Source: Oscillospiraceae bacterium
GTDB lineage: Bacteria; Bacillota; Clostridia; Oscillospirales; Ruminococcaceae
Direction of reading: 5' to 3'
DNA length: 64,000 nt
Assembly: GCA_017847885.1 (NCBI GenBank)
Contig: JAGAUA010000020.1
Coordinates: forward strand, 124,001-188,000
In this document: positions 57,088 through 58,341 of the stretch, in pieces
Numbering within the stretch: the stretch's first letter is position 1
How the letters are laid out: the number at the start of each line of letters is the position of its first letter
The notes under the pieces: model-generated
Told to the model about the DNA's origin: nothing
Seen by the model: the letters and a program-made list of their open reading frames with translations, nothing else
Databases searched by the model: none
Position numbers and translations under genes: made by a program

Positions 57088-57114
57088 TTAGCACTTTAAC
57101 CCCAAAAGTGTTAG
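57088..57114 (-). promoter_or_regulatory. second, degenerate CIRCE-like operator
   Basis: TTAGCACTT-N9-AAGTGTTAG; arms pair at 7 of 9 positions and the 9-bp spacing is that of CIRCE. It shares its last four bases with the perfect CIRCE. Confidence 0.6.
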
Positions 57115-57137
57115 CACTCAATCTCTTTGAGTGCTAA
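57111..57137 (-). promoter_or_regulatory. CIRCE element (HrcA operator)
   Basis: TTAGCACTC-N9-GAGTGCTAA, an exact match to the CIRCE consensus, immediately downstream of the -10 box of htpG. Confidence 0.95.
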
Positions 57138-57204: not shown

Positions 57205-57405
57205 TTAAGCATTGTCCTGTTTATTTGAAGAACAGTCCGTATCGGTTTCATCGAGATTATCAATTGCGTAATTCAAGCATTGAACTACAAGCTGATTTAG
57301 TGACAAATTATATTTATAAGCAAGTGAGTCAAGCTGTTCAACAAGTTCAATAGGCAAGCGAAAAGTCTTGCTTACAGTGTCATAACCCTTTTGAATTTTA
57401 AACAT
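57205..57405 (-). CDS. ribbon-helix-helix DNA-binding protein, 66 aa
   Basis: ATG 57405 after GGAGAT. SKTFRLPIELVEQLDSLAYKYNLSLNQLVVQCLNYAIDNLDE has the RHH pattern: an R-L-P beta strand, then two helices joined by a turn at Y-N-L-S. The tail is acidic and polar. RHH proteins of this size act as antitoxins, plasmid copy regulators or repressors of small operons. It is divergent from the three-gene cluster at 57578-58306, with a perfect 21-bp inverted repeat between them, so autoregulation and control of that cluster are likely. Confidence 0.85.
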   Translation of the reverse strand: MFKIQKGYDTVSKTFRLPIELVEQLDSLAYKYNLSLNQLVVQCLNYAIDNLDETDTDCSSNKQDNA

Positions 57406-57477
57406 AAAATATCTCCATTTCATAAAATACTATATTTTATATTAATTATTTATGATTTATTGTGAAAAATATACAAG

Positions 57478-57529
57478 ACATTTAAATTATTTTTGCAAGA
57501 TAAATTAATTGCAAAAATAATTTAAATGT
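57478..57529. promoter_or_regulatory. perfect 21-bp inverted repeat, divergent promoter/operator
   Basis: Arms 57478-57498 and 57509-57529 are exact reverse complements, separated by 10 bp. The inner end of each arm is TTGCAA, serving as a -35 box in each direction. To the right a TATAAT lies 17 bp further (57532-57537); to the left TGTATA lies 17 bp further on the minus strand (57470-57475). The likely operator of the RHH protein. Confidence 0.8.
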
Positions 57530-57537
57530 GTTATAAT
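57509..57537 (+). promoter_or_regulatory. promoter of the DUF697-like cluster
   Basis: TTGCAA (57509-57514, inside the right arm of the inverted repeat), 17-bp spacer, TATAAT (57532-57537). Confidence 0.72.
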
Positions 57538-57577
57538 ATTAAATAATAGGTCGAAAAATATTTAAGGAGCTGATATA

Positions 57578-57940
57578 ATGACGAAAGAGCAAAAAACTAA
57601 ATGTCATGCAATTATTCACCCTGCCGCAACAGCCGCAGGTGCTGTCGGTGCAGGTTTGGCTCAATTGCCCTGTTCGGACAATGTTATATTGGTACCGATT
57701 CAAATAGGAATGATAGTTGCATTAGGGCAAGTATTCGGACTTGAAATACTTGAATCGGCAGCACAATCAATGCTTGCTACAGCATTAACCTCTACTGTAG
57801 GAAGAGGTATTTCTCAAGCTTTAATAGGATGGATTCCCGGAATTGGAAATGCTATTAATGCTTCTACCGCCGCTGGTCTGACAGAAACCATAGGATGGAT
57901 TATTGCTAAAACTTTTGATGAGCAAACGCAAGAATTATAA
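57578..57940 (+). CDS. DUF697-like small membrane-associated protein, 120 aa
   Basis: ATG 57578 after AAGGAG. Gly/Ala-rich hydrophobic helices: HAIIHPAATAAGAVGAGLAQLP, VPIQIGMIVALGQVFGLEIL, AQSMLATALTSTVGRGISQALIGWIPGIGNAINASTAAGLTETIGWIIAKTF. The P-x-x-x-x-x-x-x-x-I-Q-x-x-M-I...G-R-x-x-S-Q...G-W-I-P-G-x-G motifs resemble DUF697, which occurs fused to GTPases or alone. No GTPase is present here. First gene of an AT-rich three-gene cluster; role unknown. Confidence 0.78.
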   Translation: MTKEQKTKCHAIIHPAATAAGAVGAGLAQLPCSDNVILVPIQIGMIVALGQVFGLEILESAAQSMLATALTSTVGRGISQALIGWIPGIGNAINASTAAGLTETIGWIIAKTFDEQTQEL

Positions 57941-57952
57941 GGAGGAATACTT

Positions 57953-58105
57953 GTGGCAAGAAAAGTTAGAAAAGATTGTAAAGTTGGTAATTTTGAAAAA
58001 AAGCATGGTATTGAAGGAGCAATAAAGCATGCAAATGGAAAAAAAGTTCGCAAAGATATGAAAATAGGCAATTTCAGAAAAGAACTTGAAAAAAATAAAA
58101 AATAG
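57953..58105 (+). CDS. 50-aa lysine-rich protein with internal repeat
   Basis: GTG start at 57953, 7 nt after AAGGAGG, stop TAG 58103-58105. The product contains RKVRKDCKVGNFEKKHG and, 30 residues later, KKVRKDMKIGNFRKELE: an internal duplication of V-R-K-D-x-K-x-G-N-F. About one third Lys/Arg, so nucleic-acid or membrane-phosphate binding is plausible. Falls below usual length cut-offs. Between the DUF697-like gene (12 bp) and the 62-aa gene (12 bp), each with its own good ribosome site. Not recognised. Confidence 0.7.
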   Translation: MARKVRKDCKVGNFEKKHGIEGAIKHANGKKVRKDMKIGNFRKELEKNKK

Positions 58106-58117
58106 AGGTGTTTTTAA

Positions 58118-58306
58118 ATGGCTCAAAGTAAAGAAACCTTGATAAAAAGATTTAACTCAACAGCCGACACATATGAAGAAAAAGGTAAGCGTGAATGGGC
58201 TTATGCTAAAAACGGTCTTGGAGGCGAACACTATGCCTATGCAAGAGATGCATTTGAACGTGCAAAACGTAATCGTGAAAAAGCAGAAAAATTAAGACAG
58301 GAATGA
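58118..58306 (+). CDS. 62-aa charged helical protein
   Basis: ATG 58118 after AGAGGTG. Strongly helical and charged: SKETLIKRFNSTADTYEEKGKREWAYAKN, a short GLGGEHYAYARD turn, FERAKRNREKAEKLRQE. No signal or membrane segment. Last gene of the accessory cluster and followed by a strong terminator. Not recognised. Confidence 0.75.
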   Translation: MAQSKETLIKRFNSTADTYEEKGKREWAYAKNGLGGEHYAYARDAFERAKRNREKAEKLRQE

Positions 58307-58313
58307 ATAACAC

Positions 58314-58341
58314 CCCCGTATCACACGATACGGGGATTTTT
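58314..58341 (+). terminator. rho-independent terminator of the accessory cluster
   Basis: 9-bp stem CCCCGTATC / GATACGGGG, loop ACAC, then ATTTTT. Confidence 0.88.

What the first reader, a model, noticed from the sequence alone, without database searches (positions are those of the whole stretch)
57205..58306. AT-rich accessory islet: RHH regulator divergent from a three-gene micro-operon across a perfect 21-bp inverted repeat
Seen: a 66-aa ribbon-helix-helix gene on the minus strand and three tiny plus-strand genes (DUF697-like 120 aa, Lys-rich 50 aa, charged 62 aa), all with good ribosome sites. The islet has a clearly lower GC content than htpG and folC on either side and its own terminator. 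Between the two units lies a perfect inverted repeat (57478-57498/57509-57529) whose arms end in TTGCAA, each 17 bp from a -10-like box. Established: RHH proteins bind short inverted repeats and often autoregulate toxin-antitoxin, plasmid or phage-derived modules. Inference: a self-regulated mobile or defence-like module in which a membrane protein, a polycation and a charged helical protein act together.
Basis: partly seen in the sequence, partly recalled or inferred. Interest (0 to 1): 0.78.

Follow-up and report, generated by a model that had tools for sequence, protein, structure and literature searches.

The report
Self-regulated islet of tiny membrane genes
A short, horizontally acquired gene islet in a gut-type Clostridia bacterium carries a small DNA-binding protein that very probably switches itself and three tiny genes through one shared DNA motif; relatives keep the same switch but attach different, mostly membrane-linked, small genes to it, one of whose protein families also occurs inside anti-virus defence operons.

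Summary
The islet (57207 to about 58335; GC 30-36% against about 50%) has four genes and the only perfect inverted repeat of 14 bp or more in the window; 0 of 1000 shuffles of the intergenic reach 21 bp. Homologous htpG-folC intervals in three genus relatives hold unrelated genes with matching flanks.

Comparative evidence refines the reading. The conserved operator is TTGCAA-N10-TTGCAA, overlapping both -35 boxes; the outer arms of the repeat are not conserved. Twenty-three RHH relatives carry 27 TTGCAA boxes where 3.6 are expected, at 16- and 11-bp spacings, and several close ones face different cargo (TM2, bPH_2, small membrane proteins). The core occurs once in this genome, so regulation is local.

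The 120-aa protein is a stand-alone relative of the DUF697 domain of P-loop GTPases, spread across phyla, under purifying selection, and in two genomes fused into operons with a Bunzi BnzB-like protein. The 50- and 62-aa proteins are undescribed families, each beside a 120-aa homologue in other genomes.

Best reading: a transferable RHH-repressed cassette with exchangeable membrane-linked cargo. A defence or membrane-stress role is plausible but untested; toxin-antitoxin is weak. The four-gene set as such was seen only here.

The parts
57207..58335 (.). the islet as defined by alignment with the homologous htpG-folC interval of three genus relatives, which there holds other genes
57205..57405 (-). 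RHH regulator, 66 aa, autorepressor candidate (a longer 72-aa frame starts at 57423, but homologues start at MFKIQKGY)
   Evidence: pN/pS 0.08-0.22
57470..57498 (-). promoter of the RHH gene: -35 TTGCAA (57498-57493), 17 bp, weak -10 TGTATA (57475-57470); TATAC block conserved in relatives
57478..57529 (.). perfect 21-bp inverted repeat with 10-nt spacer
57493..57514 (.). conserved operator core TTGCAA-N10-TTGCAA; only copy in the whole genome
57509..57537 (+). promoter of the three-gene operon: -35 TTGCAA, 17 bp, -10 TATAAT
   Evidence: conserved in L006, L071, L072
57578..57940 (+). 120-aa stand-alone DUF697-like helical membrane-type protein (M120)
57953..58105 (+). 50-aa Lys/Arg-rich protein with two copies of a VRxDxKxGNxxK motif (K50); undescribed family
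58118..58306 (+). 62-aa charged helical protein (C62); undescribed family
58314..58335 (+). intrinsic terminator, probably part of the slot and not of the islet

Best explanation
The islet is a transferable accessory cassette. A 66-aa RHH protein binds TTGCAA boxes that overlap the -35 elements of two back-to-back promoters, so that it represses both its own gene and a three-gene operon. The operon encodes a small helical membrane-type protein (a stand-alone relative of the C-terminal DUF697 domain of dynamin/IRG-like P-loop GTPases), a polycationic peptide and a charged helical peptide. When repression is lifted by an unknown signal, the 120-aa protein would insert in or associate with the membrane, helped by the two charged partners, as a membrane-stress or anti-phage accessory. 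Shown by sequence comparison: the RHH fold, operator conservation, exchange of cargo behind the same switch, horizontal spread, selection. Inferred: repression rather than activation, membrane association, joint action of the three products, the inducer and the benefit.
For: RHH fold: Foldseek top matches of the model are almost all RHH proteins (CdbA, Arc, CopG, AmrZ), probability near 1. Operator: 23 RHH loci with at least 55% identity carry 27 TTGCAA against 3.6 in shuffles (maximum 10 of 300 sets), box spacing 16 bp (8 times) and 11 bp (7 times); TTGCAA sits at both -35 positions in the window and in G191, G248 and G239; the core occurs once in the whole genome. Cargo exchange: the close RHH clade (98/92 support) faces the window genes, a TM2/zinc-ribbon protein, a bPH_2 protein, or a 60-aa membrane peptide plus a CxxCxG peptide; wider relatives face DUF4190, DUF2752, DUF4352 and lipoprotein genes. 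Linkage: RHH-120aa-50aa is kept divergent in G191, RHH-120aa in Lachnospiraceae L020, 120aa-62aa in G103 and L026. Membrane role: the DUF697-like domain of GTPases is found by the family HMM (E to 3e-18), with a hydrophobic segment at residues 36-54. In L007 and L027 the 120-aa domain is joined to a coiled tail that in L160 follows a Gly/Ala-rich putative membrane hairpin, all beside the same BnzB-like subfamily. Islet and slot. Selection.
Against: No binding or expression data. TTGCAA may be conserved partly because it is the -35 element itself, although homologues also carry extra boxes 11 bp away from it. Membrane insertion of the 120-aa protein is not shown, and its hydropathy is moderate (maximum 2.06). 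The three-gene operon as such has no second example. The direction of control (repression) is inferred from box position.
Confidence: 0.6

Rival explanations
1. Type II toxin-antitoxin module: the RHH protein is the antitoxin of one of the small proteins.
For: RHH antitoxins (VapB, TacA, AtaR) are among the fold matches; tiny genes; autoregulation; accessory location.
Against: The RHH gene is monocistronic and divergent from the candidates, unlike the usual antitoxin-toxin operon. The same RHH family faces TM2, bPH_2, DUF4190, DUF4352 and lipoprotein genes, so it has no fixed partner. No PADLOC hit and no toxin family hit.
Confidence: 0.1
2. Membrane-stress or envelope accessory without any anti-phage role: cargo proteins modulate the envelope, and the islet sits near htpG by chance or shares stress induction with it.
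For: Cargo across relatives is dominated by membrane or exported proteins (TM2, bPH_2, DUF4190, DUF2752, lipoproteins). An HrcA (CIRCE) operator lies at 57111-57137 just beside the islet.
Against: CIRCE points to htpG and is also found in relatives without the islet. Homologues of the 120-aa protein are patchy and cross phyla, unlike core stress genes.
Confidence: 0.3
3. Anti-phage accessory or effector: the 120-aa protein is the membrane component of a minimal defence module related in its working to Bunzi.
For: The same domain is fused to a BnzA-like N-terminus beside BnzB in G177 (E 3.6e-15 and 2.7e-26) and lies between BrxA (E 1.3e-41) and BnzB (E 7.8e-19) in Pelotomaculum. It can replace a membrane hairpin there. 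Homologues also lie beside WYL-type regulators.
Against: The genome has no BnzB. Among 248 family genomes only G177 has both BnzB and a 120-aa homologue, with about 0.8 expected by chance. No defence gene flanks the window islet.
Confidence: 0.25
4. The inverted repeat is only a bidirectional promoter accident or a transcript structure, and the RHH gene has another target.
For: The outer arms of the repeat are not conserved in G191, G248 or G239.
Against: TTGCAA boxes with fixed 16- and 11-bp spacing recur with the RHH gene in unrelated contexts, and the core is unique in this genome. No Rfam match.
Confidence: 0.08

Closest known systems
RHH autorepressors (CopG of plasmid pMV158, Arc of phage P22, omega, AmrZ)
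   Same: Small RHH fold, short paired operator boxes over a -35 region, inferred autoregulation.
   Different: Stand-alone chromosomal family with no clear NCBIfam or Pfam assignment (weak YlcI_YnfO_N and HicB hits only), tied to exchangeable small membrane-linked cargo across a bacterial family.
DUF697 (PF05128) domain of YcjF-like and IRG-like P-loop GTPases
   Same: Homologous helical domain by family HMM with the conserved I-P-G-x-G segment.
   Different: Here it stands alone, about 120 aa, without a GTPase domain, with its own invariant residues (I13 H14 P31 M45 I86 P87 E103 G106 W107).
Bunzi defence system (BnzA/BnzB, PADLOC PDLC03833/PDLC03834)
   Same: In G177 and Pelotomaculum the same domain is part of BnzB-containing operons.
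   Different: The window islet has neither BnzA nor BnzB.
Type II toxin-antitoxin modules with RHH antitoxins
   Same: Small genes, RHH regulator, autoregulation.
   Different: Divergent arrangement, several cargo genes, cargo not fixed, no known toxin family.

Membership tests
RHH DNA-binding superfamily | strand-helix-helix fold matching solved RHH proteins | tested here: met
   AlphaFold2 model pLDDT 92-96 over the core; Foldseek matches almost all RHH, probability 0.9-1.0, TM to 0.86 of target, though E-values are above 0.05 as expected for 45 residues
RHH DNA-binding superfamily | binding to a short repeated operator | not testable with these tools
   comparative support only
DUF697 (PF05128) | match above the curated score | tested here: not met
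   window protein 16.2 bits against 27.7; 13 of 22 family members match at E up to 0.01, best 1.3e-5
DUF697 superfamily (homology, not the curated family) | profile similarity to GTPase C-terminal domains that are themselves DUF697 | tested here: met
Bunzi | presence of BnzA and BnzB | tested here: not met
   no BnzA or BnzB match in the islet; no BnzB in the whole genome
Type II toxin-antitoxin | known toxin family in the operon | tested here: not met
Type II toxin-antitoxin | toxicity of one gene neutralised by the RHH protein | not testable with these tools
   needs expression experiments
Prophage or plasmid remnant | phage or plasmid relatives of the four genes, or mobility genes nearby | tested here: inconclusive
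   none in IMG/VR; 120-aa relatives on Butyrivibrio and Enterococcus plasmids; one 50-aa relative on an unverified gut phage contig; flanks are htpG and folC

The most novel reading that the evidence does not exclude
The RHH gene and its TTGCAA operator form a reusable 'switch cassette' that spreads in this family and captures different small membrane-linked cargo, and the 120-aa stand-alone DUF697-like protein with its two charged partners is an undescribed minimal membrane-acting defence module.
Probability: 0.2. Interest if true: 0.72.

Novelty: new variant of a known kind. Interest (0 to 1): 0.45.

Why it matters
It gives a clear regulatory unit (one RHH family, one motif, defined spacing) that can be tested in one gel shift. 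It also joins several undescribed tiny-gene families, of the kind that annotation passes over, to a domain that recurs in dynamin/IRG-like GTPases and in Bunzi-type defence operons. If the cargo is protective, it would be among the smallest membrane-acting accessory modules, and the operator motif would let one list its relatives across Clostridia.

Tried and rejected
Direct repeats or att-like borders of the islet: none. RNA family or riboswitch in the intergenic: none. Known defence families for the four genes: none in PADLOC. Solved-structure relatives by sequence: none for the RHH or 120-aa proteins. Fold search of the 120-aa model: no significant Foldseek match; the VIA second look puts the MxB and MxA stalks on top (Z 8.4 and 7.9), which would fit dynamin-type helical domains but lies within the noise for helical bundles, so it is not used as evidence. 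Genome-level association of BnzB with the 120-aa family: not above chance. Operator elsewhere in the genome (a regulon): none. The original Bunzi paper is not held; PMC10952713 lists a TerB domain for Bunzi. Literature searches for this kind of cassette gave nothing relevant.

Full report
Observation. The four ORFs, the low GC content and the inverted repeat are as described. The repeat is the only perfect one of 14 bp or more with a loop up to 20 in the 64-kb window, and none of 1000 dinucleotide shuffles of the intergenic reaches 21 bp (maximum 17). With mismatches the arms extend to 27 nt at 93%. The plus-side promoter TTGCAA-17-TATAAT scores 10 of 12. The minus-side -10 (TGTATA) is weak but its TATAC block is kept in relatives.

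Islet borders. The window lies in genome G000 (2.7 Mb). In three genomes of the same genus (G248, G256, G239) htpG and folC flank an interval of similar size that holds an XRE regulator facing another ORF. Alignment shows homologous flanks up to 57206 on the left and from about 58336 on the right. So the htpG-folC slot carries different regulator-plus-cargo islets in different species. The terminator at 58314-58335 has a counterpart in the other species.

RHH protein. Homologues occur in 35 of 298 family genomes at E 1e-8 and in 6 of 21 genus genomes at E 1e-5. The model and its fold matches are RHH. Most of the closest homologues are divergent from another gene. In the close relatives G191, G248, G239 and G238 the sequence between the two genes keeps TTGCAA-N10-TTGCAA with the two boxes at the -35 positions. 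Over 23 distinct loci with at least 55% RHH identity there are 27 TTGCAA against 3.6 expected (shuffle maximum 10), and TTGCA boxes prefer spacings of 16, 11 and 27 bp. The rest of the 21-bp arms is not kept, so the long perfect repeat of the window is a local elaboration. In this genome the core pattern occurs once, so it serves only this islet.

Cargo exchange. Close RHH relatives face a TM2 plus zinc-ribbon protein (G239), a bPH_2 protein (G238), or a 60-aa membrane peptide plus a CxxCxG peptide (G248). G191 faces the same 120-aa and 50-aa genes as the window. The RHH tree joins the window to G238, G239 and G248 with 98/92 support; the place of G191 just outside is weak (few columns). Wider relatives face lipoproteins, DUF4190, DUF2752, DUF4352 or XRE genes. 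The shared theme is membrane or export.

The 120-aa protein. Relatives with 46-69% identity occur in family genomes and in Lachnospiraceae, Puniceicoccales, Synergistaceae, Pelotomaculum, Enterococcus and, in MAGs that may be impure, Thermoanaerobaculum and Leptolyngbyaceae, and at 44-50% on Butyrivibrio and Enterococcus plasmids. Twelve columns are invariant in 22 sequences. The family HMM finds the C-terminal part of P-loop GTPases that themselves match DUF697. The model is four helices, pLDDT 83. pN/pS is 0.29-0.38. In G177 this domain is fused behind a BnzA-like N-terminus and lies beside BnzB. In Pelotomaculum it lies between BrxA and BnzB. Both carry a coiled tail that, in the BnzB locus L160 of a third genome, is attached to a Gly/Ala-rich putative membrane hairpin instead (51% identity over 64 aa). 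This suggests that the domain acts as a membrane module. It does not make the window islet a Bunzi system, because BnzB is absent from the genome.

The 50-aa and 62-aa proteins. Neither has a Pfam, NCBIfam or PADLOC family; PHROG hits are weak. The 50-aa protein has relatives in G191 (70%, beside the 120-aa gene), G527, G489, a Paenibacillus plasmid and an unverified gut phage contig; pN/pS is 0.32-0.51. The 62-aa protein has relatives beside 120-aa homologues in G103 and Neglectibacter X58, and a probably broken one in G139 without a 120-aa neighbour. The pairs recur; the full set does not.

Mechanism. Most likely an RHH dimer pair occupies the two TTGCAA boxes, covers both -35 elements and silences both directions. 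Cargo is released by a signal not visible in sequence. Shown: motif, fold, selection, recurrence. Inferred: repression, membrane action, joint function, benefit. A toxin-antitoxin reading is weak because the partner is not fixed and the genes are divergent. A defence reading is possible but rests on neighbours of homologues in two genomes; at genome level BnzB and the 120-aa family do not co-occur above chance.

Verdict. A real and well-supported accessory regulatory cassette of a known kind in a new form, with undescribed tiny-gene families. Moderate interest.

Noticed in passing
window 57111-57137: CIRCE element (TTAGCACTC-N9-GAGTGCTAA, HrcA operator) upstream of htpG on the minus strand, conserved upstream of htpG in genus relatives; htpG under HrcA differs from the B. 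subtilis arrangement (own knowledge).
   Followed up: partly
L067, L068, L069 (htpG-folC slot of G248, G256, G239): The same slot holds an XRE regulator of about 77 aa facing unrelated ORFs of 133-225 aa, so it looks like a small exchange site for regulator-plus-cargo islets.
   Followed up: partly
L026, L031, L033: Homologues of the 120-aa gene lie beside 355-360-aa proteins that match WYL/WCX regulators (tested for L026 and L033) and, in L026 and L033, beside 60-70-aa Gly-rich peptides.
   Followed up: partly
L008, L139, L015: Stand-alone 120-aa homologues and GTPase-DUF697 genes share neighbours: a small HNH protein (NYGWYTC..CGKKFRK) and a 68-72-aa Cys-rich protein.
   Followed up: no
L116-L120 (G074): Five RHH paralogues in one genome, three of them facing small XRE genes.
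   Followed up: no
L160 and L148: BnzB-like genes with small Gly/Ala-rich membrane-hairpin plus coiled-coil genes beside them, two copies in tandem in each locus.
   Followed up: partly
L025 1457-2739: Two diverged 120-aa homologues in one Synergistales contig, separated by a gene of about 76 aa whose N-terminus resembles that of the second.
   Followed up: no
L009 2828-3238 and L031 60-185: ORF translations with repeated VPVRGV/PREGCEAHL-like words near 120-aa homologues suggest CRISPR arrays close by; not verified.
   Followed up: no
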